NCBI GenBank assembly: GCA_964019135.1
Contig: OZ025249.1
Span: 5,072,039 to 5,136,038, forward strand
Direction of reading: 5' to 3'
Source: Arenicola marina
Taxonomy: Eukaryota > Annelida > Polychaeta > Arenicolidae
Length of the DNA: 64,000 bases
The stretch's first letter is position 1. The number at the start of each line of letters is the position of its first letter. Made by a program: the position numbers and the translations under genes. Of this stretch, positions 13,071 to 61,163 are shown one piece after another. The notes beneath the pieces are model-generated. The model made no database searches. It was not told the DNA's origin and was given only the letters and a program-made list of their open reading frames with translations.

Positions 13071-13135
13071 TCTCGAGTTTGTCGCCGACAGATACGCGAT
13101 AGGCGCTTCCAGTTTGGGCAGACGACACCCATCGA

Positions 13136-13190
13136 AGCGCCATCTGGTGTTTGTCTGCTGCGCCTTGCCCGCCGCCCGGTAGGGGGCGGT
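13136..13190. promoter_or_regulatory. Pair of CTCF-like motifs at the edge of the 60-bp array
   Basis: 13136-13150 on the minus strand reads ACACCAGATGGCGCT and 13176-13190 on the plus strand reads CCGGTAGGGGGCGGT; each matches CCASYAGRKGGCRSY at 14 of 15 positions. They point in opposite directions, 25 bp apart, about 65 bp after the array ends. Confidence 0.4.
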
Positions 13191-13460
13191 GGCTTCGTGT
13201 GAACTCTGGGGGAGGTGTTATTTCGGTCTAAGCCAGTGCGTATGGGTAACATACACTGGCTCCTTAGCATGGGATTGCTTACAGACATACTTCAGGCTCC
13301 CTTTGGTATGGGTGTCTGTGTGAGTAGGTGTCCATGACCATTAGCTATTGTTTACCCGAACAATTTGTTTGTGTTCACCAGTTTGAGATAACGAGGATGT
13401 CTTGGGGGTCACTGTCTTTAGTAGATCTGTCCTTGTATATGGCCTACCTGACCGTGTATC

Positions 13461-27053: not shown

Positions 27054-27194
27054 GTGTCCGAGTGTGTCCGTACATTGCCGAAGAGGGCCGAGCGGCGTGC
27101 TCCGCCCCGGCCGCTGGTCAGGTCGACTGTGAGGCCCAGCACTGTTGCTGGGACCCGCAGGCCAGGGACGACAGCCTCAAGTGCTTCAGGGAAG
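27054..27194 (+). CDS. Exon 1: trefoil (P-type) domain
   Basis: Residues about 1-47 form one phase 1-1 exon. The spacing R-x2-C, then C-x4-C-C-W and a last K-C-F gives six cysteines in the order expected for a trefoil domain; the segment [10 protein letters not shown] matches the CC-[FYW]-D core. The usual glycine after the second cysteine is replaced by serine (ACSAPAAG), so it is a divergent copy. Trefoil domains are secreted or extracellular modules found in mucosal peptides and in some mosaic proteins. It is the most N-terminal exon I can place; what precedes it is unknown. Confidence 0.85.
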
Positions 27195-42100: not shown

Positions 42101-45100
42101 CCTGCCCGAGGCCGCCCTGCTGCCCTACGCCGAGGCCCACCAGCAGGGCCACGCCTGCTACGTCGCCGCCCAGATAGGCCGCATCAAGGGCGAGTTCGTC
42201 TTCGTCGTGGGCGATAATAAGACGTATGGCGGCTTCTACAACGCACCGCTCCAGAAAGGTGGCACCTACGACGTGTGGTTCGGCATCGTCGTCACGGTCG
42301 ACGGGGTGAGTGCAGCCTCGTTCTCAATCTGGGTCATGCAGCCTCGTTCTCAATCTGGATCATGCAGCCTCGTTCTCAATCTAGGTCATGCAGCCTCGTT
42401 CTTAATCTGGGTCATGCAGCCTCGTTCTCAATCCGGGTCATGCAGCCTCGTTCTCAATCTGGGCCATGCAGCCTCGTTCTCAATCTGGGTCATAGCCAAT
42501 TATAATCCTATAATGAGGTTTATAGTACAAAATGTATTTGGTACATTCAATAATTTCATTCACGTTATTTCCACGACACATTCTGGGACACTGCCACTAA
42601 GCCTCGGCAACACTATATGTAATGAAAACAATATGGCAAAATCGCCTTATATTTCAAACTGTTATGATGTCATGTCCGTAGCGCTTCGTTTGTACTTTTG
42701 ATACCTCGGGAAAATGAATGGCAGTTGTGCTCTAAACCTACGTTATGTATGTTGAAGATATGTATTGTTTTGTCCCTTAACAGGAAACTGCCGCGTCATA
42801 CTCCAAGACTGACGGACCTGCTATTGGTAAGCTGGCTGAGTGCTGGCTGAATGCGGCACGTGGTGACACAGACTGAACAAAATACTATCATCAATATCAG
42901 TAAATTACATATAATCATTGTGCAATCGATATATCATTGTGTAATTAGTAATGGTTTTAAAGTATTATATGAAGATATATGGAATATTGGTAGCTTGCGT
43001 AAGTAATAAAACTCTTATGCAGTGTATTGTTAACACACTGACTTTGATCCCTGTCTATATTGTTTAAAAAAACATGGGAACCTGCCTGATTGACCTGGTT
43101 CCCTGTCGGTACTGTTCACAGACAGACCTGGATCCCTGCCTGTACTGTTCACACCCTGACCTGGTTCCCTGCCTGTACTGATCACTCCCTGACCTGGTTC
43201 CCTGTCAGTACTGTTTACACACTGACCGGGTTCCCTGCCTGTACTGTTCACACCCTGACCTGGTTCCTTGCCTGTACTGTTCACTCACTGACCTGGTTCC
43301 CTGTCAGTACTGTTTACACACAGACCGGGTGCCCTGCCTGTACTGTTCACACCCTGACCTGGTTCCCTGCCTATACTTTACATACACTGACCTGGTTCCG
43401 TGCCTGCTTCCAGCGGCCTTCGTGGTGCCTGATGACGGGGGTTCCATGGCGCTGGCCGGCGCCAGTATCGGCGTGGCCCTGGCCATCATCCTGCTCGTGG
43501 CCATCCTAGTCATCGTCTGCATCAAGAAGTAAGTCCGGGGCCTCCCGGTGTCACTTATATGTTTGAGAGGTTATACTGGCGTAATATGTATGACATTGTT
43601 CACACATGACGATAAAATAGAGGCAGATGGCCAAATGAAATACCTAGACAACATGAAAAGGTTGGTGCCACGGATATACAAATGCACACTGTCAAACCAC
43701 GGTTGCTTCTGTGCATAGCTCAGTCCATGAAAACGGTGCCCTAATCAAACAATAGTCAAACTGATAGTTAAGATACTAAGGCGTCGGCTACAGGTTTATC
43801 CGTACCTGTCCAATAGTTACTGCAAGGACATATCATTTAGAAACTATTGGACATTAAATCCGGACAACATTATCTTAATATAGGGTTTGTGTATATGAAA
43901 CTGAAGATGGTGTTGAGTCCTCGTTTGCGCCGGTTGGCGTCGCTGATGTGTTTGGTTGTTGGTCGTGTCTTCAGAAAGAAGCAGAATCGCGAGGCTTGTC
44001 ACACCGAGACCACTGACACAGAGCGACTGGACGCTTCCCCCAAGATGTACAACAACCACCATGAGAAAGGTACCCGCCAACCCCTGTTTGGCCGACCTCT
44101 CTATCAGTACCTCTACCCTGTTCCACAGTGGTCCTCTCTATCAGTACCTCTACCCTGTTCCACAGTCACTGTGGTCCTATCTATCAGTACCTCTACCCTG
44201 TTCCACAGTCACTGTGGTCCTCTCTATCAGTACCTCTACCCTGTTCCACAGTGGTCCTCTCTATCAATACCTCTACCCTGTTCGGCAGTGTTCCTCTCTA
44301 TCAATACCTCTACCCTGTTCCGCAGTGGTTCTCTTTATCAGTACCTCTACCTTGTTCCGCAGTGGTCCTCTCTATCAGTACCTCTACCCTGTTCCACAGT
44401 GGTCCTCTCTATCAATACCTCTACCCTGTTCCGCAGTGGTCCTCTCTATCCGTACCTCTACCCTGTTCCGCAGTGGTCCTCTCTATCCGTACCTCTACTC
44501 TGTTCCGCAGTGGTCCTCTCCATCTGTACCTCTACCCTGTTCCGCAGTGGTCCTCTCTATCAGTACATCTACCCTATTCCGCAGTGGTCCTCTCTATCAG
44601 TACATCTACCCTGTTCCGCAGTGGTCCTGTCTATCAGTACATCTACCCTATTCCGCAGTGGTCCTCTCTATCAGTACATCTACCCTATTCCGCGGTGGTC
44701 CTCTCTATCAGTACATCTACCCTGTTCCGCAGTGGTCCTGTCTATCAGTACATCTACCCTGTTCCGCAGTGGTCCTGTCTATCAGTACATCTACCCTGTT
44801 CCGCAGTGGTCCTCTCTATCCGTACTTCTACCCTGTTCCGCAGTGGTCCTCTCTATCAGTACATCTACCCTGTTCCGCAGTGGTCCTGTCTATCAGTACA
44901 TCTACCCTGTTCCGCAGTGGTCCTGTCTATCAGTACATCTACCCTGTTCCGCAGTGGTCCTGTCTATCAGTACATCTACCCTGTTCCGCAGTGGTCCTCT
45001 CTATCAGTACATCTACCCTATTCCGCAGTGGTCCTCTCTATCAGTACATCTACCCTGTTCCGCAGTGGTCCTGTCTATCAGTACATCTACCCTGTTCCGC

Positions 45101-48100
45101 AGTGGTCCTGTCTATCAGTACATCTACCCTGTTCCGCAGTGGTCCTCTCTATCCGTACTTCTACCCTGTTCCACAGTGGTCCTCTCTATCAGTGCCTCTA
45201 CCCTGTTCCGCAGTGGTCCTCTCCATCTGTACCTCTACCCTGTTCCGCAGTGGTCCTCTCTATCAGTACCTCTACCCTGTTCCGCAGTGGTCCTCTCTAT
45301 CCGTACCTCTACCCTGTTCCGCAGTGGTCCTCTCTATCAGTACCTCTACCCTGTCCCGCAGTAGTCCTCTCTATCAGTACATCTACCCTGTTCCGCAGTG
45401 GCCCTCTCTATCAGTACCTCTACCCTGTTCCGCAGTGGCCCTCTCTATCCGTACCTCTACTCTGTTCCGCAGTGGTCCTCTCTATCCGTACCTCTACCCT
45501 GTTCCGCAGTGGTCCTCTCTATCAGTACCTCTACCTTGTTCCGCAGTGGTCCTCTCTATCAGTACATCTACCCTGTTCCGCAGTGGCCCTCTCTATCAGT
45601 ACCTCTACCCTGTTCCGCAGTGGTCCTCTCTATCCGTACCTCTACCCTGTTCCACAGTGGTCCTCTCTATCAGTGCCTCTACCCTGTTCCACAGTGGCCC
45701 TCTCTATCAGTACCTCTACCCTGTTCCGCAGTGGTCCTTTCTATCAGTACATCTACCCTATTCCGCAGTGGTCCTTTCTATCAGTACCTCTACCTTGTTC
45801 CGCAGTGGTCATCTCTATCAGTACCTTTACCCTGTTCCGCAGTGGCGCAGTGGTCCACTCTATCAGTACCCCCACCTTGTTCCGCAGTGGTCCTGCCGGA
45901 CCTGTGCAGCACCGTGCTGGAGGATGACGGGGCCGACTGCGCGGAGACTGAGCCTCTGTACGCTAACGCAGCGGACGAGGAGCGACACCCGCCCATAGCC
46001 GTGGAACACCTCTGGAACGTCGTCAAGGAGAAGCGATCCTACAAACCTGACGGGCTCAAGGCCGAATACGACGTACGTCTTTAACTTACCGGTTACTTCA
46101 AGTGTAATTCGGTATTTCACGCGCGTTGACTTTATGGCTCATTGGGATTAGATTAACTGTCTGTACAAGCGTTTATCTGTATCTTTTTATGTGTATGTAT
46201 GTGTGCCTGCGCTTCCAACTGCTGCTTGTGTATACTGCAAGGGAGGGGGGTGGGAGTTGTAGTTGTGTGTTGTATTGAAGAGTAGTAATTTTGTAAAGCT
46301 GTATCACTCTAAATTCGGATCATCATATTGTTTCTTATCTGACGCAAACACGTTTTTGTCTTAAGTATTTTAGAGTTTTATGGGTGGCCCAGGCGGCAGC
46401 GACAACATGTCTTAGCCTGGGTCTCCTAACCGATAAGCTGTACCAACGTATGATCGCATTATTATTGTTTTTCTTTTTGGTTGAATAAACGTCACTGAAT
46501 CTGAATCTGAATCTGTGTTTTGGCGCGTGGACGACTTATCAATCAGATTTCAGATTATTCCACTGTCAGGCATTGGGTATTTTTTGGTATTTGCGCAATG
46601 TTGCTACTTTCTAACTTACAGAAGCTGTGGGCTGACTTGGTAATGTTTCTTTGATACTTCCTCACCGCCAGGAGCTGTGGGCTGACTTGGTAATGTTTCT
46701 TTGATACTTCCTCACCGCCACGAACTGTGGGCTGACTTGGTAATGTTTCTTTGATACTTCCTCACCGCCAGGAGCTGTAGGCTGACTTGGTAATGTTTCT
46801 TTGATACTTCCTCACCGCCAGGAGCTGTAGGCTGACTTGGTAATGTTTCTTTGATACTTCCTCACCGCCAGGAGCTGTAGGCTGACTTGGTAATGTTTCT
46901 TTGATACTTCCTCACCGCCAGGAGCTGTAGGCTGACTTGGTAATGTTTCTTTGATACTTCCTCACCGCCAGGAGCTGTAGGCTGACTTGGTAATGTTTCT
47001 TTGATACTTCCTCACCGCCAGGAGCTGTAGGCTGACTTGGTAATGTTTCTTTGATACTTCCTCACCGCCAGGAACTGTAGGCTGACTTGGTAATGTTTCT
47101 TTGATACTTCCTCACCGCCAGGAGCTGTGGGCTGACTTGGTAATGTTTCTTTGATACTTCCTCACCGCCAGGAACTGTGGGCTGACTTGGTAATGTTTCT
47201 TTGATACTTCCTCACCGCCAGGAACTGTGGGCTGACTTGGTAATGTTTCTTTGATACTTCCTCACCGCCAGGAGCTGTAGGCTGACTTGGTAATGTTTCT
47301 TTGATACTTCCTCACCGCCAGGAGCTGTAGGCTGACTTGGTAATGTTTCTTTGATACTTCCTCACCGCCACGAACTGTAGGCTGACTTGGTAATGTTTCT
47401 TTGATACTTCCTCACCGCCAGGAGCTGTAGGCTGACTTGGTAATGTTTCTTTGATACTTCCTCACCGCCAGGAGCTGTGGGCTGACTTGGTAATGTTTCT
47501 TTGATACTTCCTCACCGCCAGGAACTGTGGGCTGACTTGGTAATGTTTCTTTGATACTTCCTCACCGCCACGAACTGTGGGCTGACTTGGTAATGTTTCT
47601 TTGATACTTCCTCACCGCCAGGAACTGTGGGCTGACTTGGTAATGTTTCTTTGATACTTCCTCACTGACAGGAGCTGCCGATGGGTCTACGTGCCAAGTG
47701 TGAAATCGCCAGGAAACAGGAGAACAAAACCAAAAACCGATACGGCAACATCGTCGCCTGTGAGTCCCTCTGGTGCACTGTAGTAATAGGACGGGGTGGG
47801 TGGGGGGGGGCCTTATTACTGGAGGTTCTAACTAGCTCAGTGTGTAAGCGGGCTGAGCTGCAGACCTACAGGTCATGAGGGTCACCCCGTTGCCCAGTAG
47901 GTGGCGCGTTCGTCTTGTCGAGTGTGCTCTGCTAGGCCAGCTATGGCGGCCGGTCCGGAGGCATGGCCCCTCTGTTCCTTGACCCCTGGCGATATAACAC
48001 AGGTTAAAGCGCCCTATATAAGCTGAATTAAGCATGCCAACAGGTCATGGGTTTGAATCCCAGCGCCTGCATTCTGTCGGGCCATGTTTTACCCAAACCC

Positions 48101-51100
48101 ATTATCCCGGAAGGTTTCTGGACTCAACGTGTCATGTCTTTCATTCCATTCTCTGGGAGATAATGCGAAGATGCTGGATGGGTGTCGTTGCACATATTCA
48201 TATAGATGTCTACATAGGTACCCTTTGGAGGATTATGTTGAGTATATTGTCCGCTGACCGGTGTGTTGTTACCGCAGACGACCACTCGCGAGTGTTGCTG
48301 GACTGTCTGGAGGGCGACCCGCATTCCGACTACATCAATGGAAACTATATAGATGTAAGTGGGGCCAAAACTATGAGGAAACTATGTAAATGTCAGTGGG
48401 GCTAAAACTATGATGAAACTATATAGATGTCATTGGGGCTAAAACTACGAGGAAACTATATAGATGTAAGTGGGGCAAAAACTATGATGAAAACTCTCCT
48501 CATTTAACGGGGCTAATGTCCCAATTTATGTACAATATTCAGATAATTTATTAGTGGATTTGATTCTCTCCAAATGGAATATAATAAAGGGATAGTGATA
48601 TATTCAGCAGATGTATACATATCATGATTGTATCTTGTCTTTCTGTACTATTGCAGGCCTACATGAAGCCCCAAGCCTACATTGCCACACAAGGTGGGTG
48701 GTCAACCTTTAACAACCAGCCTTGGTTAACGGTGTGAGGGGCGTAGGGACAAATCTTGTCCACTTGTCATTCCGTATCATTCCCACAGTGGGTTAAATCT
48801 TACCGATGAAATCTTATTATTATACCTTGGTGATGACGACATGGGCTCTGACCATATGTAACGTGGTTGTTGACTGGATATATCATCCATGACATGATAT
48901 AGGTTGTTACCGCTATTTATCCTCGAGAGCTTACCCCTTGATTCATTGTCTATTGCGACTGAACGTCTCGACCGTGCCTTGACCTGTGACGTGTGACACG
49001 TGTTGCAGGTCCCAGCAAATACACGCTGAACGACATGTGGCGGGCGGCCTGGCAGCTCAACTCTCACCGCATCATCATGGTGACCAACCTGGTGGAGGAT
49101 GGCCGGGTAAGCTCAGTCCCTCTCTTATCGTCATGGTGACCAACCTGGTGGAGGATGGCCGGGTAAGCTCAGTCCCTCTCTTATCGTCATGGTGACCAAC
49201 CTGGTGGAGGATGGCCGGGTAAGCTCAGTCCCTCTCTTATCGTCACGGTGACCAACCTTGTGGGGGATGGCCGGGTAAGCTCAGTCCCTCTCTTATCGTC
49301 ATGGTGACCAACCTGGTGGAGGATGGCCGGGTAAGCTCAGTCCCTCTCTTATCGTCACGGTGACCAACCTTGTGGGGGATGGCCGGGTAAGCTCAGTCCC
49401 TCTCTTATCGTCATGGTGACCAACCTGGTGGAGGACGGCCGGGTAATCTCAGTCCCTCTCTTATCGTCACGGTGACCAACCTTGTGGGGGATGGCCGGGT
49501 AAGCTCAGTCCCTCTCTTATCGTCATGGTGACCAACCTGGTGGAGGATGGCCGGGTAAGCTCAGTCCCTCTCTTATCGTCATGGTGACCAACCTTGTGGG
49601 GGATGGCCGGGTAAGCTCAGTCCCTCTCTTATCATCATGGTGACCAACCTTGTGGAGGATGGCCGGGTAAGCTCAGTCCCTCTCTGATCATCATGGTGAC
49701 CAACCTGGGGGAGGATGGCCGGGTAAGCTCAGTCCCTCTCTGATCATCATTGTGACCAACCTTGTGGAGGACGGCCGGGTAAGCTCAGTCCCTTTCTTAT
49801 CGTCATGGTGACCAACCTGGTGGAAGATGGCCGGGTAAGCTCAGTCCCTCTCTGATCGTCATTGTGACCAACCTGATGGAGGATGGCCGGGTAAGCTCAG
49901 TCCCTCTCTGATCATCATGGTGACCAACCTTGTGGAGGATGGCCGGGTAAGCTCAGTCCCTCTCTGATCGTCATGGTGACCAACCTTGTGAAGGATGGCC
50001 GGGTAAGCTCAGTCCCTCTCTTATCATCATGGTGACCAACCTGGTGGGGGATGGCCGGGTAAGCTCAGTCCCTCTCTTATCGTCATGGTGACCAACCTGG
50101 TGGGGGATGGCCGGGTAAGCTCAGTCCCTCTCTTATCATCATGGTGACCAACCTGGTGGAGGATGGCCGGGTAAGCTCAGTCCCTCTCTTATCGTCATGG
50201 TGACCAACCTGGTGGAGGGTGGCCGGGTAAGCTCAGTCCCGCTCTTATCGTCATGGTGACCAACCTTGTGGGGGATGGCCGGGTAAGCTCAGTCCCTCTC
50301 TTATCGTCATGGTGACCAACCTGGTGGAGGGTGGCCGGGTAAGCTCAGTCCCTCTCTTATCGTCACGGTGACCAACCTTGTGGAGGATGGCCGGGTAAGC
50401 TCAGTCCCTCTCTGATCATCATGGTGACCAACCTTGTGGAGGATGGCCGGGTAAGCTCAGTCCCTCTCTGATCGTCATGGTGACCAACCTTGTGAAGGAT
50501 GGCCGGGTGAGCTCAGTCCCTCTTTGATCATCATGGTGACCAACCTTGTGGAGGATGGCCGGGTAAGCTCAGTCCCTCTCTGATCGTCATTGTGACCAAC
50601 CTGATGGAGGATGGCCGGGTAAGCTCAGTCCCTCTCTGATCATCATGGTGACCAACCTTGTGGAGGATGGCCGGGTAAGCTCAGTCCCTCTCTGATCGTC
50701 ATGGTGACCAACCTTGTGAAGGATGGCCGGGTAAGCTCAGTCCCTCTCTTATCATCATGGTGACCAACCTGGTGGGGGATGGCCGGGTAAGCTCAGTCCC
50801 TCTCTTATCTTCATGGTGACCAACCTGGTGGGGGATGGCCGGGTAAGCTCAGTCCCTCTCTTATCATCATGGTGACCAACCTGGTGGAGGATGGCCGGGT
50901 AAGCTCAGTCCCTCTCTTATCGTCATGGTGACCAACCTGGTGGAGGGTGGCCGGGTAAGCTCAGTCCCGCTCTTATCGTCATGGTGACCAACCTTGTGGG
51001 GGATGGCCGGGTAAGCTCAGTCCCTCTCTTATCGTCATGGTGACCAACCTGGTGGAGGATGGCCGGGTAAGCTCAGTCCCTCTCTGATCATCATGGTGAC

Positions 51101-54100: not shown

Positions 54101-57100
54101 CAGTGTTGCCCCTGGCTGTGGCCGTGCACTGTGAGGTGACAGTGTTGCCCCTGGCTGTGGCCGTGCACTGTGAGGTGACAGCGTTACCCCTGGCTGTGGC
54201 CGTGCACTGTGAGGTGACAGCGTTGCCCCTGGCTGTGGCCGTGCACTGTGATGTGACAGTGTTGCCCCTGGCTGTGGCCGTACACTGTGAGGTGACAGTG
54301 TTGCCCCTGGCTGTGGCCGTGCACTGTGAGGTGACAGTGTTGCCCCTGGCTGTGGCCGTGCACTGTGAGGTGACAGCGTTGCCCCTGGCTGTGACCGTGC
54401 ACTGTGAGGTGACAGCGTTGCCCCTGGCTGTAGTCGTGCACTGTGAGGTGGCAGTGTTGCCCCTGGCTGTGGCCGTGCACTGTGATGTGACAGTGTTGCC
54501 CCTGGCTGTGGCCGTGCACTGTGATGTGACAGTGTTGCCCCTGGCTGTGGCCGTGCACTGTGAGGTGACAGTGTTGCCCCTGGCTGTGGCCGTGCACTGT
54601 GAAGTGACAGCGTTACCCCTGGCTGTGGCCGTGCACTGTGAGGTGACAGCGTTGCCCCTGGCTGTGGCCGTGCACTGTGAGGTGACATCGTTGCCCCTGG
54701 CTGTGGTCGTGCACTGTGAGGTGGCAGTGTTGCCCCTGGCTGAGGCCGTGCACTGTGAGGTGACAGTGTTGGCTGTGGCCGTGCACTATGAGGTGACAGC
54801 GTGGCCCCTGGCTGTGGCCGTGCACTGTGAGGTGACAGCGTGGCCGTGCACTGTGAGGTGACAGCGTGGCCCCTGGCTGTGGCCGTGCACTGTGAGGTAA
54901 CAGCGTGGCCCCTGGCTGTGGCCGTGCACTGTGAGGTAACAGCGTTGCCCCTGGCTGTGGCCGTGCACTGTGAGGTGACAGCGTGGCCCCTGGCTGTGGC
55001 CGTGCACTGGGAGGTGGCAGTGTTGGCTGTGGCCGTGCACTGTGAGGTGACAGCGTGGCCGTGCACTGTGAGGTGACAGCGTGGCCGTGCACTGTGAGGT
55101 GACAGCGTGGCCCCTGGCTGTGGCCGTGCACTGGGAGGTGGCAGTGTTGGCTGTGGCCGTGCACTGTGAGGTGACAGCGTGGCCGTGCACTGTGAGGTGA
55201 CAGCGTGGCCCCTGGCTGTGGCCGTGCACTGGGAGGTGGCAGTGTTGGCTGTGGCCGTGCACTGTGAGGTGACAGCGTGGCCGTGCACTGTGAGGTGACA
55301 GCGTGGCCCCTCGCTGTGGCCGTGCACTGGGAGGTGGCAGTGTTGGCTGTGGCCGTGCACTGTGAGGTGACAGCGTGGCCGTGCACTGTGAGGTGACAGC
55401 GTGGCCCTTGGTTCCAGCACAAGTGCGAGCAGTACTGGCCGGAGGGGGAGCCCCGTACGTATGACGACATCACCGTGGAGATGACAGACGTCGAGCAGTT
55501 CGCAGACTTCATGATCCGCTCCTTCAACATCACAAAGGTAGGGACGGGGTCCCTGTAACTTAGTGTAAGGCCTAATTAGCCTCGGAAAGGGTCCCAATAG
55601 GGTCCAAATTGGGCCTCGAGATGGCCTCTATAAGGTCCCAATAGGGTATGTACTGCGGTGTTTTAGGTTAACTTCCAATGCTGCCGCTCACCACTATTCA
55701 ATATAGCTCACGTATTACTCATATCTAGCATTTCGTACAAAGCCCCAATGGATGGTGTCCAGGGCGTGGTAGACGTTGTGACTGACACGGGGTGGTTGCC
55801 TTGCAGGACGGGACGACCAAACCCATCCACCAGTTCCACTTCACCTCCTGGCCGGACCACGGGGTGCCGCAGTACGCCACCTCCCTCCTCGCCTTCAGGA
55901 AGAAGGTCCGGAGCTATGACGACCCCACGGCCGGACCCACCATCGTGCACTGCAGGTGAGTCCTTATATACGCTGCCCAGCTAACGGTCTGGTTAACGCT
56001 TGCTGTGCAGTATACTGTTGAAGGCATGATGTACATTTTTATTTGTACTACATGGGTACACTCTCCGGTGTACACTGCACATGGTGTACTGCGGGTGTAC
56101 ACAATGTATACGACAGGTCACATTAGGGCACTACAAGTGTACACAGTGTATTTGTATGCAATGTGTACTGCATTTTTACGAAATGTGTACTGCATTTGTA
56201 CGCAATGTGTACTGCATTTTTACGAAATGTGTACTGCATTTGTATGCAATGTGTACTGCATTTGTATGCAATGTGTACTGCTTTTGTACACTATATACTA
56301 CATGTGTACACTAAATATACTAGAGATGTACTCTCTACATACTATACACTACATGTGTTTCCATGCTGTGTACGTGTGTTGGGTCCGCCTTCAGCGCCGG
56401 GGTGGGGCGGACGGGCACGTTCATCGCGGTGGACTACCTGCTGGACCAGGCCAAGACCGAGGGTCAGGTCGACATCTACCACTGCGTTAAGCAGATGAGG
56501 ACCAAGCGAACAAACATGGTGCAGACGCTGGTAGGTACAGCCCCCCCCCCCCCCACAACCACCACCACCACCACCGCCACCACCACAGCGCGGGGATAAT
56601 ATCAGCCAGGACCTGAGCGGTATAGCCCAGATCGTAGTCAATATAAACCGAGACGTTGCCAATATGAACCGAGACGTTGCCAATATAAACCAAGACGTTT
56701 CCAATATAAACCTGGACGTGGTCAATATAAACCGAGACGTTGCCAATATAAACCGAGACGTTGCCAATATAAACCAAGACGTGGTCAATATAAACCAAGA
56801 CGTTGCCAATATAAACCAAGGCGTGGTCAATATAAACCAAGACGTTGCCAATATAAACCAAGACGTTGCCAATATAAACCAAGACGTGGTCAATATAGCC
56901 AAGACGTGGTCAATATAAACCAAGACGTTGCCAATATAAACCTGGACGTGGTCAATATAAACCAAGACGTTGCCAATATAAACCAAGACGTTGCCAATAT
57001 AAACCAAGACGTGGTCAATATAGCCAAGACGTGGTCAATATAAACCAAGACGTTGCCAATATAAACCAAGACGTGGTCAATATAACCAAGACGTGGTCAA

Positions 57101-60100
57101 TATAAACCGAGACGTTGCCAATATGAACCGAGACGTTGCCAATATAAACCAAGACGTTTCCAATATAAACCTGGACGTGGTCAATATAAACCGAGACGTT
57201 GCCAATATAAACCGAGACGTTGCCAATATAAACCAAGACGTGGTCAATATAAACCAAGACGTTGCCAATATAAACCAAGGCGTGGTCAATATAAACCAAG
57301 ACGTTGCCAATATAAACCAAGACGTTGCCAATATAAACCAAGACGTGGTCAATATAGCCAAGACGTGGTCAATATAAACCAAGACGTTGCCAATATAAAC
57401 CTGGACGTGGTCAATATAAACCAAGACGTTGCCAATATAAACCAAGACGTTGCCAATATAAACCAAGACGTGGTCAATATAGCCAAGACGTGGTCAATAT
57501 AAACCAAGACGTTGCCAATATAAACCAAGACGTGGTCAATATAACCAAGACGTGGTCAATATAAACCAAGACGTTGCCAATATAAACCAAGGCGTGGTCA
57601 ATATAAACCAAGACGTTGCCAATATAAACCAAGACGTTGCCAATATAACAATGCCATAGTCATTATAAGCCGGTAATTGATCAATATAACCGGGACTTGT
57701 TCAATTTAAGTCATGACGTCGTCAAGTGCTGTGGTGTATGCGGTATGTAGCAATATGACGTCATCACTTGCTGTGTTCTCGTTCCAGGAGCAATATTTGT
57801 TTGTGTACGACGCGCTGTTGGAGGCTCTGAAGAGCGGCGACACGTCATATCCGTGTAACAGCTTCCGGCAGAAATATGCCGAGCTGCTGCAGGTCAGCCA
57901 GGACACGGGGCGAGTCCGGCTGGAGGAGGAGTACGAGGTCAGGGTCCGCCGGTGACACCCAAGTCATCCACCCATCCATCTTCGTCTTCCCCTGTGTCTG
58001 GGGCCTTTCATCCCACACATTGCATCATCCCGGCGGGTTTCACGGCCGAATTAAACCGTCAGGTTCAAAACAGTATCCTAAAACATCGACAGTCCATTCT
58101 ATTTCCATCCATCTTGTAATTGTTCATGATTTGTTTGTTCCCACTGTCATCTCATCCTAATGTAAAATCAATATACGTGTAGATCTAACAATATTATTCC
58201 TCAAGTATTTAGTTTATGCTTGATTTGATTTTCTTGTGTGTCTGCAGCTCCTGGGTACGATGTCGCCCTCTGTCGGTGGCACCAACTCTAAAGACATCTT
58301 GGATCCTGAAAATCTGGAGAAAAACCGACACCAAGACATTGTGCCGCGTGAGTGCAGATTACTAACAGTCGACTGTATCGAACGCCCTAATGACGTCTAA
58401 CAAGCTGTTTGACACATTAAGCCTTTAATCGCGATACACATACATGGAGATATGCATTGTATTTATACTTAGGTAGATTCTGTACACTTTGTAGGCACAG
58501 CGGAGTGCTTAATAAGTATAACATAGATATATCTTATTTCATTTACGTGTAATGTCAGAGTATAGTAAAGGTGTGTATTTAAGTATATTGATAACTATTC
58601 ACTTCACCTATTGCCTGTATGTGCGGTGAGTATAAGCTGGCTGTGTCTGTGTTCCCCTAGTGGACAACCTGTCGAGGCCTTACCTGTTGACGTACATTCC
58701 CGGTGCAACAGACTACATCAACGCTGTCTTCGTCGATGTAAGCTTCCCTCATACCTCCTATAACACCCTAGACCTCGATACAAGGCCTTGTAGTCCCGGG
58801 GCCACATAGGACGTGTGGGTGGGTGGGTGGGGTGGGGTGGGTTGGGGTGGGGTGGAAATCCGAGATATGTTGTATGACAATTGTATGATCTAGCTAGGAA
58901 ATGTGCACATGGTGGTCGATCTGCTTGCTATGTAAGGCGAAATCAGTGTTTTGTATCGCTCACGTATAACTCACGCGTAGTGTTTAGTTAAATGGTCGAT
59001 TTTGTAGAGCTCCAAATGACTAGGTGAAATGTTGAGTTCGTTTGTTGATATTTTACATGTGAGTGAAATGGGTCTTAAACAAAAGGGACTTTTCGAAATG
59101 ACCACTATTTACATATGGGCGATAATGGGTGTTTGTTGCAGGGCTACAAGCAGCGCGATGCCTTCATCATCACCCAGATGCCTCTCCCCAACACGCTGGT
59201 CGACTTCTGGGCCATGGTGTACGACCACGACTGCCGCACGGTCATCATGATGAACGACCTTGACCCTGAAGACCCCGTATGTAATGTGAACACGCTGGGT
59301 GACACGTGCTCTGGTCTCGTCAGGAAGGGGGAGGGGGGCTGCAACGTCGTATATATTGATTGAGTGGCGTTCATATTTTTATAATAATTAATATATATAA
59401 TATGTTTATGATGCTAATTTACTTTTTGCAATGTTCCGTAATTATAGATCATACGGAAATTATTACATTGAGTTTGAATCGCCTGAAATTGATAGGAAAT
59501 AATGAGTAAGTATTAGCGGTGACTCCTAATTGATCCCTTGTACCCAAGCCCTCTTTTAGCTGCTAATAAGGCCCACGTTAGCCGAAGTGGGAGTCTGTGC
59601 CCCTTACTGAAGTCTTGCTCCATCGCACAATAGTCTCTCTCAGCGATGGTGCATCTTCAGACCCCATTGGAAGTCTCGACGGGCCGGTCAGTTTGATGTA
59701 ACTTACCGTTGAGTCCTGGTTTGGCTGTGTTGTTGACTGGCTGTTGTCTTGCAGACGTGTGCCAGGTACTACCCGGAGGACGCCGGCACAGTGAAGCACG
59801 GACAGTTCTCCGTGGAGACCGTCGCCGTGGACCCCAGCGTCGCCAACGTCCTCGTCCGAGATCTCAGTCTCACCTACAACAAGCGGGTCAGTACTCGGGA
59901 GATTCCAGTACTCGGTATACGAATTTGGGTATTCGGTACTCGGATTCCGCGCTCAGCCCCAACACATTGTTATGATATTCGTTTAGTGACCGCCGATATT
60001 ATGGAATCAACCTTTGCTAAATAATTTGAAAATATAATTTGTGAAAAATCCTACGCGTATAAATTTAAGTGTCCGTGGCAAACGCTGGCGTTGAGCGTTA

Positions 60101-60977
60101 TTATAGATCGGAATCTGTTTGGAATGTAACGGAAAAGTAAAAAATCACTGTTTATTTCATTATCTTTTTTCAAAATATATATATAATATATGTATATATA
60201 TACATGTTTTATTGTGATATATATTTGTCCCCCCCCCCCCTCTCGTGGCGGTGCAGGGGTTGGACGAGGCGCGGACGGTGCGCCAGTTCCAGTACCAGGG
60301 GTGGGCCCGGGGCCAGAGTCTGCCCTCCTCCTGCCTCTCCCTCATCACCCTCCTCGGCATGGTGGAGAAGTGGCAGCAGCGCTCCGGCAACCAGACCATC
60401 ATCGTCCACTGCATGTAAGGCTGTCTGGGCAACATGGGGGAAGGGGGAGAGACTGTCACCATGGAGTCAGTGATGGGGAGAGGCAACATGGGAACAGACT
60501 GTTCTAGTCAGTGATGGGGTGGGCGGGGAACTAGACTCTTAGACTAAGAACTAAACGAGGTTTTACCAATGTGAGGCCGACAATACAACGGATTAATTAA
60601 TCTGGTATCATGGGACAATCTTGTAATTATTCATTATGGAACACATTAATGATGGTAATGACAATGTTCAAAGAATAACATCAGTGTTGGTTTTAGAGGG
60701 TTACCCAGAATGTCTGCAGTAGTTTGCACGGCATGTGATACCACCACACAGCAGTTTGTCCTCTGTAACTGTACACGTCTTTAAGGTTGCTTGTGTGTGT
60801 CTCTCGTGGCGTGGTGACCCGTGTCGTGTTTCGTTGAGCAGGAACGGCGCGGACCGGAGCGGCCTGTTCTGTGCCATCAGCTACATGGTCGAGCGACTCA
60901 AGGTGGAACAGGAAGTGGACGTCTTCCAGAGCGTCAAGCACACCAGGGTCAACAGGCCACAGATCGTCCCCAGTCTG
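27054..60977 (+). CDS. Receptor protein tyrosine phosphatase, R2B-like catalytic half, trefoil/EGF/kringle/FN3 ectodomain (partial gene, 36 exons)
   Basis: This gene encodes a single-pass membrane receptor with two cytoplasmic tyrosine phosphatase domains; the expected role is dephosphorylation of phosphotyrosine proteins under control of an extracellular ligand or cell contact. Exons: 27054-27194, 27629-27763, 28876-29124, 29709-29843, 30609-30746, 32004-32141, 33827-33925, 34627-34923, 35233-35369, 35675-35891, 36207-36515, 37045-37347, 38473-38696, 38981-39050, 39390-39496, 39939-40131, 40675-40789, 41993-42305, 42784-42826, 43414-43528, 43975-44069, 45888-46072, 47672-47759, 48278-48354, 48657-48693, 49009-49106, 55418-55537, 55807-55955, 56395-56530, 57788-57937, 58248-58347, 58661-58737, 59142-59276, 59755-59886, 60257-60414, 60842-60977. 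All join in phase with GT-AG borders and no internal stop. Residue numbers in the other entries count from the first codon here. The first exon opens in phase 1, so a start/signal-peptide exon is missing upstream; the last exon is beyond the window. Confidence 0.93.
27629..27763 (+). CDS. Exon 2: EGF-like repeat 1 (Tie/MEGF type, eight cysteines)
   Basis: Residues about 48-92, a 135-nt phase 1-1 exon between TTGCAG and GTAAGT. It shows the pattern C-x2-G-x-F-G-x2-C-x3-C-x-C-x5-C-x6-C-x3-C-x4-W-G-x2-C, as in the laminin-like EGF repeats of Tie receptors, MEGF proteins and scavenger receptors (segments [10 protein letters not shown] and [14 protein letters not shown]). It is separated from the other EGF exons by the kringle exon, which suggests that the kringle was inserted into an EGF run at a phase-1 intron. 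Confidence 0.88.
   Translation, partial: NVGRVISAGGAASSVAVRPARCVTATQGSVPRVALATDGAKDVY
27764..28653. other. Intron 2, non-repetitive part
   Basis: Unique sequence with a C-rich tract at 28,155-28,178. No extra exon recognised. Confidence 0.6.
28654..28820 (+). mobile_element. tRNA-derived SINE copy 4, just upstream of the kringle exon
   Basis: A-box-like GGTGTAGTTGTTAGCGG, B box GGTCCTGGGTTCGAATCC, body GGGGCATGTTTCATCC and tail AAACGGCCTGAAACACC. The element lies within the 3' part of intron 2 and ends about 55 nt from the kringle exon. Confidence 0.72.
28876..29124 (+). CDS. Exon 3: kringle domain
   Basis: Residues about 93-175, a single 249-nt phase 1-1 exon. Six cysteines lie in kringle order. 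The signature [FY]-C-R-N-x8-W-C is met by [14 protein letters not shown], and the closing [11 protein letters not shown] matches the family C-terminus. Kringles bind proteins, lysine side chains or lipids in plasminogen, HGF and ROR kinases. I know of no vertebrate receptor tyrosine phosphatase with a kringle, so the combination is unusual. A tRNA-derived SINE ends less than 60 nt upstream of this exon. The acceptor is preceded by a C-rich tract. Confidence 0.93.
29709..29843 (+). CDS. Exon 4: EGF-like repeat 2
   Basis: Residues about 176-220. Eight cysteines in the same Tie/MEGF arrangement as exon 2 (start [11 protein letters not shown], end [12 protein letters not shown]). It has the same length (135 nt) and phase as exon 2, which supports descent by exon duplication. 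Acceptor TTTGCAG, donor GTGAGT. The usual G-x-F-G motif reads G-L-F-D here. Confidence 0.87.
30609..30746 (+). CDS. Exon 5: EGF-like repeat 3
   Basis: Residues about 221-266 (138 nt). Cysteine pattern as in the neighbours; key segments [10 protein letters not shown] and [14 protein letters not shown]. Acceptor TTTGCAG. I chose the donor CAG|GTCTCT at 30,746 because it is the GT that keeps phase 1; it is weak by sequence, so the exact 3' border is less certain than for other EGF exons. Confidence 0.83.
32004..32141 (+). CDS. Exon 6: EGF-like repeat 4
   Basis: Residues about 267-312 (138 nt). Eight cysteines, with [10 protein letters not shown] at the start and [10 protein letters not shown] at the end. 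Acceptor TTTGACAG, donor GTAAGC, phase 1 on both sides. Together with exons 2, 4 and 5 it forms an array of similar modules interrupted only by the kringle. Confidence 0.87.
33827..33925 (+). CDS. Exon 7: shortened EGF-like repeat 5
   Basis: Residues about 313-345, only 99 nt against 135-138 nt for its sisters. It keeps the C-terminal six cysteines ([12 protein letters not shown] and [10 protein letters not shown]) but lacks the first loop C-x2-G-x-F-G-x2-C. Splicing is phase 1-1 with acceptor CCTCAG and donor GTACAC. Either the repeat is truncated in the protein, or a small exon with the first loop lies in the 1.7-kb intron 32,142-33,826; I saw none. It is the last EGF module before the fibronectin repeats. 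Confidence 0.78.
   Translation, partial: TAAAFAPPRRVTPRRAAVAPAAPPAGLGPCVT
34627..34923 (+). CDS. Exon 8: fibronectin type III repeat 1
   Basis: Residues about 346-444, one complete FN3 domain in one phase 1-1 exon of 297 nt. Landmarks are the B-strand tryptophan (SITVTWPAW), the C-strand GYFLYLKTW, and the F-strand tyrosine ([13 protein letters not shown]). The GDGP turn before the C strand resembles the first FN3 of R2B phosphatases. FN3 domains form the rod of adhesion-type phosphatase ectodomains. Confidence 0.88.
35233..35891 (+). CDS. Exons 9-10: fibronectin type III repeat 2
   Basis: Exons 35233-35369 and 35675-35891 encode residues about 445-562, joined in phase 0 inside the domain. 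The AB region carries a polar insert ([16 protein letters not shown]) before the core SVAWR. The second half has HYEIYF and the F-strand [15 protein letters not shown]. The paired cysteine position WGCDRV recalls the second FN3 of R2B proteins. An N-glycosylation sequon (NYT) is visible. The donor CGG|GTCGGT is weak but is the one that preserves frame. Confidence 0.85.
36207..36515 (+). CDS. Exon 11: fibronectin type III repeat 3
   Basis: Residues about 563-665 in one 309-nt phase 1-1 exon. Core landmarks: [14 protein letters not shown], then VLYYVLRYK, then [20 protein letters not shown]. Acceptor GCGCAG, donor GTGAGT. This is a canonical FN3 with both the Trp and the Tyr of the fold. Confidence 0.9.
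37045..37347 (+). CDS. Exon 12: fibronectin type III repeat 4
   Basis: Residues about 666-766 in one 303-nt phase 1-1 exon. Core landmarks: [24 protein letters not shown] and [15 protein letters not shown], with one NAT sequon. Cysteine in the BC loop parallels cysteine-bearing FN3 repeats of R2B phosphatases. Acceptor CCACAG is preceded by a pyrimidine-rich CACC repeat. Confidence 0.89.
37684..38132. repeat. 17-bp minisatellite in intron 12, about 26 copies
   Basis: Unit GATCGGGTTAGGGAGGT with TTCGGGAGG and GTGAGGC variants. Single GATCGAATTAGGG-like precursors occur upstream at about 37,547. Despite GGGTTAGG it is not a telomeric hexamer array. Confidence 0.95.
38473..39050 (+). CDS. Exons 13-14: fibronectin type III repeat 5
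   Basis: Exons 38473-38696 and 38981-39050 join in phase 0 and encode residues about 767-864. Landmarks are [31 protein letters not shown] and then [13 protein letters not shown] from the second exon. The split just before the G strand is typical of two-exon FN3 modules. Upstream is an intron with a 17-bp minisatellite and a C16 tract directly before the acceptor. Confidence 0.88.
39390..40131 (+). CDS. Exons 15-16: fibronectin type III repeat 6 (closest to R2B)
   Basis: Exons 39390-39496 and 39939-40131 join in phase 0 and encode residues about 865-964. Landmarks: [20 protein letters not shown] and [18 protein letters not shown] followed by YGPAT. From memory, vertebrate R2B proteins have T-x-Y-x-F-T-I-R-A-S-T-x-K-G-F-G-P at the same place, so similarity to that group becomes clear from here on. 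The exon 16 donor GTGAGT is followed within 15 nt by a GGTACC-rich repeat. Confidence 0.9.
40142..40360. repeat. GGTACC-rich short tandem repeat at the donor of exon 16
   Basis: Units of 8 or 16 bp built from GGGGTACCGGGGTACCAGAG start about 10 nt after the exon 16 donor. Many copies contain the palindrome GGTACC. Confidence 0.92.
40675..42826 (+). CDS. Exons 17-19: membrane-proximal module of R2B type
   Basis: Exons 40675-40789, 41993-42305 and 42784-42826 (phases 2 and 0 between them) encode residues about 965-1121. The segment [10 protein letters not shown] and then [14 protein letters not shown] followed by [11 protein letters not shown] match the last extracellular module of PTPRK/M/T/U, where the order is YQIVVEE, GDNKTYNGYWN and YRIYF. 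R2B proteins carry a furin site here; I see no R-x-[KR]-R motif, only LREREEK and LVRRD. The intron between exons 17 and 18 is almost entirely a 28-bp minisatellite ending at the acceptor. Confidence 0.87.
40909..41992. repeat. 28-bp minisatellite filling intron 17 and ending at the exon 18 acceptor
   Basis: Unit CTGACCTGTCGCCCCTATCT then CCCCGCCG, about 38 copies. The last unit is changed from CCCCGCCG to CCCCGCAG, which is the acceptor used by exon 18. A ten-unit block (about 41,213-41,492) is repeated 280 nt later. Confidence 0.94.
42311..42492. repeat. 26-bp minisatellite at the donor of exon 18, seven copies
   Basis: Unit GCAGCCTCGTTCTCAATCTG followed by GGTCAT. The first unit begins five nt after the GT of the exon 18 donor. 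Confidence 0.95.
43093..43410. repeat. 33-bp minisatellite before the transmembrane exon, about ten copies
   Basis: Unit GACCTGGTTCCCTGCCTGTA then CTGTTCACACCCT. The last unit reads GACCTGGTTCCGTGCCTG and passes into the acceptor CTTCCAG of exon 20. Confidence 0.92.
43414..44069 (+). CDS. Exons 20-21: transmembrane helix and juxtamembrane start
   Basis: Exons 43414-43528 and 43975-44069 join in phase 2 and encode residues about 1122-1191. After VVPDDGGS comes a strongly hydrophobic stretch of about 25 residues ([18 protein letters not shown]), then CIKKKKQNR, a positive stop-transfer signal that puts the C-terminal side in the cytoplasm. The following part is polar ([20 protein letters not shown]). 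Intron 21 (44,070-45,887) is a 37-bp minisatellite and its length is a multiple of three. Confidence 0.92.
44092..45887. repeat. 37-bp minisatellite with about 48 copies of the exon 22 acceptor
   Basis: Unit GCAGTGGTCCTCTCTATCAG then TACCTCTACCCTGTTCC. The true acceptor and first exon bases are TTCCGCAG|TGGTCCT, and the same string occurs in most units. The array fills nearly all of intron 21 and is open in all three plus frames for long distances. Confidence 0.96.
45888..47759 (+). CDS. Exons 22-23: wedge and N-terminus of phosphatase domain D1
   Basis: Exons 45888-46072 and 47672-47759 join in phase 0. They hold a short acidic juxtamembrane stretch, the helical start of D1 ([14 protein letters not shown]), and the phosphotyrosine recognition loop KNRYGNIVA, completed by exon 24 to [15 protein letters not shown], near-invariant in active PTP domains. 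The juxtamembrane region is clearly shorter than in vertebrate R2B proteins. Both exons begin directly at the end of a minisatellite whose units contain the same acceptor. Confidence 0.92.
46073..46620. other. Unique part of intron 22, with a possible retroelement 3' tail
   Basis: At about 46,375-46,515 a stretch ends in GAATAAACGTCACTGAATCTGA and a short CTGAAT repeat; an AATAAA plus short tandem tail is typical of non-LTR retroelement 3' ends. No coding part is left. Low confidence on the family. Confidence 0.35.
46621..47671. repeat. 50-bp minisatellite, 21 copies, carrying the exon 23 acceptor
   Basis: Unit GGAGCTGTGGGCTGACTTGG then TAATGTTTCTTTGATACTTC and CTCACCGCCA. The exon 23 border reads CTCACTGACAG|GAGCTG, and each unit carries the cognate CTCACCGCCAG|GAGCTG. 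Units also hold a donor-like TTG|GTAATG. Confidence 0.96.
47829..48125 (+). mobile_element. tRNA-derived SINE copy 5, split by a younger insertion
   Basis: Head with A box TAGCTCAGTGTGTAAGCGGG at 47,833, then a break at 47,877; the B box GGTCATGGGTTTGAATCCC and body resume at 48,042. It lies in intron 23. Confidence 0.72.
47878..48039 (+). mobile_element. 162-bp SINE-like insertion nested in SINE copy 5
   Basis: Flanked by a 10-bp direct repeat ACAGGTCATG at 47,868-47,877 and 48,040-48,049, a target-site duplication. It contains an A-box-like TTGCCCAGTAGGTGGCGCGT and ends with GCGCCCTATATAAGCTGAAT. Part of the head (47,894-47,908) also matches the CTCF core at 14 of 15 positions. Confidence 0.6.
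48278..49106 (+). CDS. Exons 24-26: D1 core (NYID, ATQG and MVTNLVE motifs)
   Basis: Exons 48278-48354, 48657-48693 and 49009-49106, phases 0 and 1 between them. Motifs in order: [35 protein letters not shown], then [19 protein letters not shown] and TNLVEDGR. These are the standard conserved blocks of classical PTP domains. Exon 25 is only 37 nt. The donors of exons 24 and 26 are both included in tandem repeats that continue into the intron. Confidence 0.93.
48340..48490. repeat. 37-bp repeat spanning the donor of exon 24, four copies
   Basis: Unit GGAAACTATATAGATGTAAG then TGGGGCTAAAACTATGA. The first unit is the real exon end and donor; the fourth recreates the same donor exactly at 48,466. 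Confidence 0.93.
49080..51225. repeat. 56-bp minisatellite with about 38 copies of the exon 26 donor
   Basis: Unit GTGACCAACCTGGTGGAGGA, TGGCCGG|GTAAGCTCAGT, CCCTCTCTTATCGTCATG. The first 27 nt are the 3' end of exon 26 (coding VTNLVEDGR), then its donor, then intron sequence and a copy of the preceding ATCATCATG. A thirteen-unit block is repeated at an offset of 728 nt (landmark ACCTGATGGAGG at about 49,868 and 50,596). Confidence 0.96.
51226..53262. other. Unique middle part of intron 26
   Basis: AT-rich. A diverged tandem duplication with shared GCATCGTGGG and TGGAACAAAATGA lies at 52,443-52,510 and 52,616-52,690. A CTCF-like 13-of-15 match lies at 51,343-51,357 on the minus strand. No exon recognised. 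Confidence 0.5.
53263..53995. repeat. 14-bp minisatellite, about 50 copies
   Basis: Unit TACACCCACCCCTA with CGG, TCGG and CG variants. Larger blocks recur within it (for example TATACTCACCCC twice). Confidence 0.94.
54000..55411. repeat. 39-bp minisatellite ending at the exon 27 acceptor
   Basis: Unit GCTGTGGCCGTGCACTGTGA then GGTGACAGTGTTGCCCCTG, about 36 units, the downstream third with shortened units. The last unit passes into TTGGTTCCAG, the acceptor of exon 27. The 13-codon period makes it open in several frames on both strands; I do not regard it as coding. Confidence 0.95.
55418..56530 (+). CDS. Exons 27-29: D1 with WPD loop and catalytic P-loop
   Basis: Exons 55418-55537, 55807-55955 and 56395-56530, phases 0 and 2 between them. 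They carry [11 protein letters not shown], the WPD loop [10 protein letters not shown] with the general acid Asp, and the P-loop [10 protein letters not shown] made across the exon 28/29 border (nucleophile Cys near residue 1,441), followed by [11 protein letters not shown]. Every catalytic element expected for an active tyrosine phosphatase is present. The preceding intron is 6.3 kb and starts and ends in minisatellites. Confidence 0.94.
56120..56300. repeat. 21-bp repeat in intron 28
   Basis: Unit around AATGTGTACTGCATTTGTAC, seven or eight imperfect copies between exons 28 and 29. Confidence 0.85.
56637..57650. repeat. 21-bp minisatellite in intron 29 with a large internal duplication
   Basis: Unit ATAAACCAAGACGTTGCCAA plus T, with GTGGTC and CCGAGACG variants. 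A block of about 459 nt starting near 56,643 recurs near 57,102; long stretches read identically in both. Confidence 0.95.
57788..57937 (+). CDS. Exon 30: D1 C-terminus and linker
   Basis: A 150-nt phase 0-0 exon. It completes the Q-loop (MVQTL from exon 29 plus [13 protein letters not shown]), where the first Gln activates water in the second catalytic step. It then gives the C-terminal helix and a linker ending LEEEYE, as R2B proteins end this exon with EEF. The donor GAG|GTCAGG is weak; reading on instead gives a stop six codons later. Confidence 0.9.
57938..60256. other. Introns 30-34 around D2 exons
   Basis: Short introns without minisatellites. A GGGTGGGTGGGTGG stretch lies at about 58,815-58,855 and an AT-rich run with (TA) repeats at 60,172-60,205, followed by C12 just before exon 35. 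Confidence 0.6.
58248..59276 (+). CDS. Exons 31-33: N-terminal half of phosphatase domain D2
   Basis: Exons 58248-58347, 58661-58737 and 59142-59276, phases 1 and 0 between them. They hold [20 protein letters not shown], which matches the R2B D2 signature KNR-x-M-D-x-L-P and lacks the KNRY loop tyrosine of D1. Then come [27 protein letters not shown] and [14 protein letters not shown]-x-PLPNT-x-DFW is characteristic of receptor PTP D2 domains. The donor of exon 33 is CCC|GTATGT. Confidence 0.91.
59755..60977 (+). CDS. Exons 34-36: C-terminal half of D2, probably catalytically weak or dead
   Basis: Exons 59755-59886, 60257-60414 and 60842-60977, phases 0 and 2 between them. They hold [10 protein letters not shown], a degenerate WPD loop ([16 protein letters not shown], Asp missing) and the P-loop VHCMNGADRSG, in which Cys and Arg are kept (compare VHCLNGGGRSG in R2B D2). 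Exon 36 ends [10 protein letters not shown] at the usual border before the last helix exon. Known R2B D2 domains have little or no activity and are thought to regulate D1 or bind partners. The final exon is past position 64,000. Confidence 0.91.
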
Positions 60978-61017
60978 GTGGGTGGAGGGTAGGGGGGACG
61001 ATGGGGGGGGGGGAGTG

Positions 61018-61085
61018 GACGTCTTCCAGAGCGCCAAGCACACCAGGGTCAACAAGCCACAGATCGTCCCGTCTGGTTGGTGGAG
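61018..61085 (+). pseudogene. Duplicated 3' end of exon 36 in the following intron
   Basis: About 60 nt with landmarks GTGGACGTCTTCCAGAGCG and CACCAGGGTCAACAAGCC repeat the end of exon 36 (60,918-60,985) with its downstream GGTGGAGGG. There are three substitutions and a small deletion before the donor, where GTGGGT has become GTTGGT. The original is the spliced copy. Confidence 0.9.
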
Positions 61086-61163
61086 GGGGCGCGGGCGGGG
61101 GAGGGGGGGGGGGGGGTGAACGGGAGAGGTATGTCCCTGTGTATTGCTTATTGTTCTATTTTA

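What the first reader, a model, noticed from the sequence alone, without database searches (positions are those of the whole stretch)
44070..61085. Minisatellites that contain the exon edge and the splice site, at five or more borders of one gene
Seen: tandem units include acceptor plus first exon bases (exons 22, 23) or last exon bases plus donor (exons 24, 26, 36); arrays also end exactly at the acceptors of exons 18 and 27 and begin within 5-10 nt of the donors of exons 16 and 18. Chance cannot explain so many. Known: amphioxus boundary minisatellites have been reported as 'mirages' (from memory). Inference: splice junctions, or R-loops or breaks at them, seed tandem duplication here.
Basis: partly seen in the sequence, partly recalled or inferred. 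Interest (0 to 1): 0.86.

Follow-up and report, generated by a model that had tools for sequence, protein, structure and literature searches.

The report
Minisatellites copying a gene's splice sites
In one receptor gene, short tandem repeats have several times copied the very edge of an exon together with its splice site, up to dozens of times over, while the gene still reads as intact; this kind of repeat is known from amphioxus, but so many in one gene makes it a good test of whether splice sites attract such duplications.

Summary
A 36-exon model (27054-60977; one frame, no stops) encodes a receptor tyrosine phosphatase with two phosphatase domains. Repeat units contain the splice junction at the acceptors of exons 22 and 23, the donors of exons 24, 26 and 36 (two copies only), and, in diverged form, the acceptor of exon 18. 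Of 18 arrays, 11 lie across or within 20 nt of a junction against 4.7 expected when exonic overlap of almost a unit is allowed (P 0.0002). With 40 nt of overlap allowed everywhere the excess is weaker (within 15 nt 10 against 5.1, P 0.004). Crossing alone is not secure (4 of 18 against 2.8, P 0.28; 6 of 19 against 3.0, P 0.04, after post hoc additions). The reading frame uses the copy next to the exon; the rest are intact decoys (donor GT in 38 of 38 full units of intron 26, the true one included) that change like untranslated DNA. Published amphioxus 'mirages' are the same kind. Junction seeding is partly supported, R-loops are not. One gene, chosen for the pattern, species unproven: a genome-wide test is decisive.

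The parts
27054..60977 (+). 36 coding exons of a receptor protein tyrosine phosphatase (fn3 domains, a transmembrane segment read by eye, two phosphatase domains); the gene continues past the last modelled exon, and its first exon was not found
   Evidence: single open frame without stops; Pfam Y_phosphatase, fn3, Fn3_PTPRU; PDB sequence matches to PTPRS, LAR, PTPRM, PTPRT, PTPRK
40134..40353 (+). array in intron 16, starting 2 nt (self-alignment) or 12 nt (TRF) after exon 16
40908..42006 (+). 28-nt array of intron 17, running in diverged form through the acceptor of exon 18 (exon starts 41993)
42311..42493 (+). 26-nt array of intron 18, starting 5 nt after exon 18
43091..43406 (+). 33-nt array of intron 19, ending 7 nt before exon 20
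44096..45894 (+). 37-nt array of intron 21 with the acceptor and first 7 nt of exon 22 in its unit (47 full units)
46619..47677 (+). 50-nt array of intron 22 with the acceptor and first 6 nt of exon 23 in its unit (21 full units)
48340..48516 (+). 37-nt array with the last 15 nt of exon 24 and its donor (4 full units)
49071..51217 (+). 56-nt array with the last 36 nt of exon 26 and its donor (38 full units)
54000..55411 (+). 39-nt based array of intron 26, ending 6 nt before exon 27
60914..61090 (+). two-copy duplication (offset 100) of the last 64 nt of exon 36 with its donor; second copy has a 2-nt deletion

Best explanation
These are boundary minisatellites. A short tandem duplication that spans or abuts a splice junction arises (inferred); the array then grows and homogenises by unequal exchange inside the intron (inferred from shared unit variants and block-like similarity); and splicing keeps using the copy next to the exon body, the first copy at donors and the last at acceptors (inferred from the open frame, and from gapless protein alignment at the joins after exons 22, 24 and 26). 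The other copies are untranslated decoys that drift neutrally (supported by the changes in exon 26 copies, a stop in an exon 24 copy and a frameshift in the exon 36 copy). Founder duplications lie at or beside splice junctions more often than uniform placement in introns predicts (shown for this gene only). Why junctions would be favoured is unknown; no function is needed.
For: Gene model with 0 stops over 36 exons and gapless matches to known phosphatases across the exon 22-23, 24-25 and 26-27 joins. Near-or-cross (20 nt) 11 of 18 against 4.7, P 0.0002, with exonic overlap up to nearly a unit; 12 of 19 against 4.9, P 2.5e-5, with the exon 36 duplication added; edges within 20 nt of a splice site 10 of 36 against 2.96 in circular shifts, P 0.0006 (10 nt: 6 against 1.5, P 0.005; 40 nt: 13 against 5.9, P 0.005). 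Arrays with more than 500 nt of free room: crossing 3 of 8 against 0.31, P 0.002 (post hoc). Decoys: GT in 38 of 38 and GTAAGC in 36 of 38 full units of intron 26, the true copy included; AG in 46 of 47 full units of intron 21 and 18 of 21 of intron 22. Exon 26 copies: 10 replacement to 3 silent changes, expected replacement fraction 0.72.
Against: Crossing alone: 4 of 18 against 2.8, P 0.28; 5 of 18 against 2.9, P 0.12; 4 of 18 against 3.7, P 0.52, if every array may overlap exons by 40 nt. In that null near-or-cross is 8 against 4.7 at 10 nt (P 0.04) and 10 against 5.1 at 15 nt (P 0.004). The window was chosen for the pattern. Short direct repeats that could seed slippage are not enriched at array-free junctions, so no cause of a hotspot was found. 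Frame alone does not exclude use of earlier acceptors in intron 21, whose array is open in two frames over long stretches. No RNA data.
Confidence: 0.6

Rival explanations
1. No junction preference. Duplications arise anywhere in introns; arrays are so dense and introns so short that many touch junctions, and unique intron sequence beside an array is lost by deletion until the array reaches the splice signals, where selection stops it.
For: With extra copies removed, the 14 array-bearing introns are shorter than the 21 array-free ones (medians 294 and 434, recounted from the lists, which prints the upper median 304; Mann-Whitney P 0.03; 5 of 14 fall below the shortest array-free intron of 269; 0 of 20000 length-proportional draws give so low a median). 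Among 11 arrays with 500 nt or less of free room, crossing is as expected (3 against 2.65). Crossing alone is not in excess in the permissive nulls.
Against: Near-or-cross remains in excess in the same 11 arrays (8 against 4.4, P 0.016) and most of all in roomy introns (4 of 8 against 0.49, P 0.0004, post hoc split). Erosion does not put exon bases into the units.
Confidence: 0.27
2. Transcription-linked R-loops or breaks at splice junctions seed the duplications.
For: Excess of edges at junctions; three of the six crossing arrays have positive GC skew on the coding strand.
Against: GC skew of crossing arrays is mixed in sign; no break or R-loop data can be reached.
Confidence: 0.07
3. The decoy arrays are kept because they act in splicing, for instance by slowing or regulating it.
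For: Most decoy sites are intact.
Against: Donor columns are not clearly less variable than the rest of the unit (2 of 6 donor hexamer columns vary, 18 of 56 in all; no formal test); 3 of 21 full units of intron 22 have lost the AG; exon-derived changes look neutral.
Confidence: 0.04
4. The arrays are steps towards new introns, as proposed for amphioxus globin genes and in the Rogers model.
For: Tandem copies carry splice signals; models published (passages of PMC3087553; PMC4974935).
Against: None of the six crossed junctions reads AG|GT (borders); each crossing lies at an intron of the model and lengthens it; no new intron is seen.
Confidence: 0.02

Closest known systems
Amphioxus 'mirages' (Adh3, troponin C, globins BflGb6 and BflGb9)
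   Same: Minisatellite-like tandem duplication of an exon-intron boundary, on either side of an intron, with many copies carrying AG or GT and splicing reported as undisturbed (passages of PMC3087553 and PMC3902484).
   Different: Those passages give 6 and 3 units for the two haplotypes of BflGb6 and one duplicate in BflGb9, with units of 10-160 bp over Adh3 and the globins; here six junctions of one gene are involved and arrays reach 38 and 47 full units. Species, RNA and haplotypes were not tested here; the original Adh3 and troponin C papers were not seen.
Lancelet PGBD5 tandem repeats
   Different: Imperfect repeats; the passage mentions a triplication of the 108-bp one.
[quoted passage not shown] potato RdRp case)
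   Same: Tandem duplication involving splice signals (passages of PMC4974935).
   Different: There a new intron forms from an AGGT-bearing exonic segment or a copied intron-exon unit; here an intron of the model only grows.

Membership tests
Amphioxus boundary minisatellites ('mirages') | tandem unit spans an exon-intron boundary | tested here: met
   five junctions clear (one of them two copies only), one diverged
Amphioxus boundary minisatellites ('mirages') | copies carry splice signals but the transcript is spliced normally | tested here: inconclusive
   signals present; use of the copy next to the exon inferred from frame and protein alignment; no RNA
Amphioxus boundary minisatellites ('mirages') | length differs between haplotypes or somatic cells | not testable with these tools
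   one sequence only; no genome held
Amphioxus boundary minisatellites ('mirages') | occurs in a cephalochordate | not testable with these tools
Intron gain by AGGT duplication (Rogers) | duplicated segment contains AGGT that supplies both new splice sites | tested here: not met
   borders of exons 18, 22, 23 (acceptor) and 24, 26, 36 (donor): none reads AG|GT

The most novel reading that the evidence does not exclude
Splice junctions are mutational hotspots for the birth of minisatellites in this genome, and the resulting arrays hold a bank of exon-edge variants (13 different peptides for the last 12 codons of exon 26 among 38 units) from which gene conversion or unequal exchange could rewrite the true exon end.
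Probability: 0.25. Interest if true: 0.75.

Novelty: new member of a known kind. Interest (0 to 1): 0.5.

Why it matters
If junctions really seed tandem duplications, exon edges would be a hidden source of intron growth and exon-end variation. The arrays are also natural experiments in splice-site choice: dozens of near-identical donors or acceptors, of which the one touching the exon body gives the conserved protein. The question should be directly testable in amphioxus assemblies.

Tried and rejected
Slippage between short direct repeats as the reason for a junction hotspot: exact 6-mer direct repeats 12-60 nt apart that flank a site average 0.33 at 21 donors and 0.43 at 21 acceptors of array-free introns, against 1.12 at 517 intron-interior points. 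R-loops: GC skew mixed. Array of intron 21 reaching its own donor: extension from 44096 towards the donor is no better than shuffles (score 0). Exon 27 start being part of its neighbouring array: extension stops after 6 nt, before the exon (P 0.32). Intron 26 array reaching further back into exon 26: weak alignment (P 0.004, one of 12 extension tests over 11 edges), not claimed. Relatives: one 33-nt unit pattern searched in viral contigs, 0 hits; none of the collections I could search is of animal genomes. Coding exons in 1-27000: the codon-usage scan gave six hits there, proline- or glycine-rich or otherwise without known likeness by eye and not searched further, so I did not use the arrays there as a junction test.

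Choices behind the counts. Distance cut-offs tried were 10, 15 and 20 nt and 10, 20, 40 nt for the circular shifts; overlaps allowed were 10 and 40 nt, and 10 nt, half a unit and a unit less 2 nt. Rows left out of the 18 arrays: periods under 10 (such as 56553-56586 and 58817-58855), TRF scores under 50, the 24-nt repeat inside exon 18 (42092-42137), and the array 61165-64000, which runs off the window and starts 187 nt after exon 36. Overlapping TRF rows were merged by hand. The exon 36 duplication is not a TRF row; adding it, and the refined edges of introns 17 and 21 used, came after the first nulls. In one search a subset labelled as introns with more than 500 nt of free range wrongly left out intron 12; one search repeats it with intron 12 and only that figure is used.

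Full report
What was checked. I rebuilt the gene from the sequence. Thirty-six exons between 27054 and 60977 on the + strand, chosen by hand with AG before and GT after each, join into one reading frame with no stop (1783 residues). Pfam finds two tyrosine phosphatase stretches, five fn3 stretches and the Fn3_PTPRU model among nine families; the cytoplasmic half matches PTPRS, LAR, PTPRA, PTPRM, PTPRT and PTPRK among 253 solved-structure sequences, 60 shown. It is a receptor tyrosine phosphatase.

What is there. Tandem Repeats Finder gives, after merging, 18 arrays of period 10 or more and score 50 or more lying in introns of the model (rows left out are named under Tried and rejected). In four of them the TRF limits include exon bases: acceptor of exon 22 (37-nt unit), acceptor of exon 23 (50), donor of exon 24 (37) and donor of exon 26 (56). 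The repeated exon part is 7, 6, 15 and 36 nt. A fifth, at the exon 18 acceptor, aligns with its unit through the acceptor and about 14 nt of exon in diverged form. Exon 36 has a two-copy duplication at offset 100 of its last 64 nt with the donor; the second copy has a two-base deletion in the exon part. Arrays in introns 11, 13, 16, 18, 19 and the right array of intron 26 come within 20 nt of a junction without crossing it.

Is it more than chance. Adding copies moves flanks apart without changing the distance between an array edge and its neighbouring exon, so placing each array uniformly in its own intron is the same as placing its founder unit uniformly in the intron as it was (my reasoning). 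With exonic overlap allowed up to a unit less 2 nt, 11 of 18 arrays lie across or within 20 nt of a junction against 4.7 expected (P 0.0002), and 8 against 3.9 at 10 nt (P 0.009); crossing alone is 4 against 2.8 (P 0.28). If every array may overlap exons by 40 nt, crossing is 4 against 3.7 (P 0.52), near-or-cross 8 against 4.7 at 10 nt (P 0.04) and 10 against 5.1 at 15 nt (P 0.004). With the refined edges, crossing is 5 of 18 against 2.9 (P 0.12), and with the exon 36 duplication 6 of 19 against 3.0 (P 0.04), near-or-cross 12 of 19 against 4.9 (P 2.5e-5). Circular shifts give 10 of 36 edges within 20 nt of a splice site against 2.96 (P 0.0006). Splitting by free room, a post hoc step, shows where the signal lies: in roomy introns crossing is 3 of 8 against 0.31 (P 0.002), in tight ones 3 of 11 against 2.65 (P 0.52), though near-or-cross is still in excess there, 8 of 11 against 4.4 (P 0.016). 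All these P values ignore that the window was brought forward because of the pattern.

Which copy is used. The match to known phosphatases runs without a gap across the exon 22-23, 24-25 and 26-27 joins, which fits use of the last acceptor copy of intron 22 and the first donor copies of introns 24 and 26; units of 50, 37 and 56 nt would shift the frame if one copy were kept. For exons 18 and 22 only the open frame speaks, and the array of intron 21 is itself open over long stretches in two frames, so earlier acceptors there are not excluded. For exon 36 the next exon lies outside the window. The other copies are near-perfect decoys: in intron 26, GT in 38 of 38 full units and GTAAGC in 36 of 38, the true copy included; AG in 46 of 47 full units of intron 21 and 18 of 21 of intron 22. 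Their exon-derived part changes like untranslated DNA: 10 replacement and 3 silent changes in exon 26 copies, with 72 per cent replacement expected, and 3 to 0 in exon 24 copies, one making a stop. Splice-site columns are not evidently protected (no formal test). In intron 26 strength cannot explain the choice of site, as decoy and true donor are the same in sequence; proximity to the exon body is the likely reason (inference, in line with exon definition, recalled).

Mechanism. I take the arrays to be by-products of tandem duplication near junctions, grown by unequal exchange; intron 26 units are most alike at a spacing of 13 among spacings with at least 25 pairs (best five listed), a sign of block duplication. 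What would make junctions prone is open. R-loops get no support from strand skew, and short direct repeats are not enriched at array-free junctions. A rival is erosion: after removing extra copies, array-bearing introns are shorter than array-free ones (medians 294 and 434, P 0.03), as if unique sequence were lost up to the splice signals. That could place edges at junctions without a hotspot, but it does not explain exon bases in the units, nor the excess in roomy introns.

What is known. Passages of PMC3087553 describe such repeats in globin genes and cite them for Adh3, with length and somatic instability; a passage of PMC3902484 adds PGBD5 and cites troponin C. The original Adh3 and troponin papers were not seen. 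PMC2206037 (passages) mentions tandem repeats in the amphioxus huntingtin scaffolds; the passages seen do not place them at borders. Eight text searches showed no title or abstract start, among the papers listed, that reports a genome-wide test of array edges against splice sites; several listings were cut, and subscription papers are mostly not held. So the kind is known; the number per gene, the array sizes and the placement test are what this window adds to the passages I saw.

Noticed in passing
27054-33925: The ectodomain seems to start with trefoil-like, EGF-like and kringle-like modules, read by eye from cysteine patterns; Pfam did not list them at E 0.001, and from memory this would be an unusual front end for a receptor tyrosine phosphatase.
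   Followed up: no
60257-60977: The second phosphatase domain reads GWARGQ where a WPD loop is expected and HCMNGADRS at the active site, by eye, so it is probably inactive.
   Followed up: no
10149-13227: A 60-nt array of 47 copies leaves open frames of over 1000 codons on both strands, as its period is a multiple of three; spurious gene calls are likely here.
   Followed up: no
61165-64000: A 43-nt array of 66 copies in intron 36 runs off the window end; whether it ends at exon 37 cannot be seen.
   Followed up: no
40908-41990 and 56621-57648: Higher-order repeats within arrays: blocks of about 280 nt in intron 17 (by eye) and 459 nt in intron 29 (TRF).
   Followed up: no
41993-61090: At the three crossed acceptors 6 to about 14 exon bases are copied, at the three crossed donors 15 to 64; with six cases this may be chance or may mean that decoy acceptors with longer exon parts are not tolerated.
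   Followed up: no
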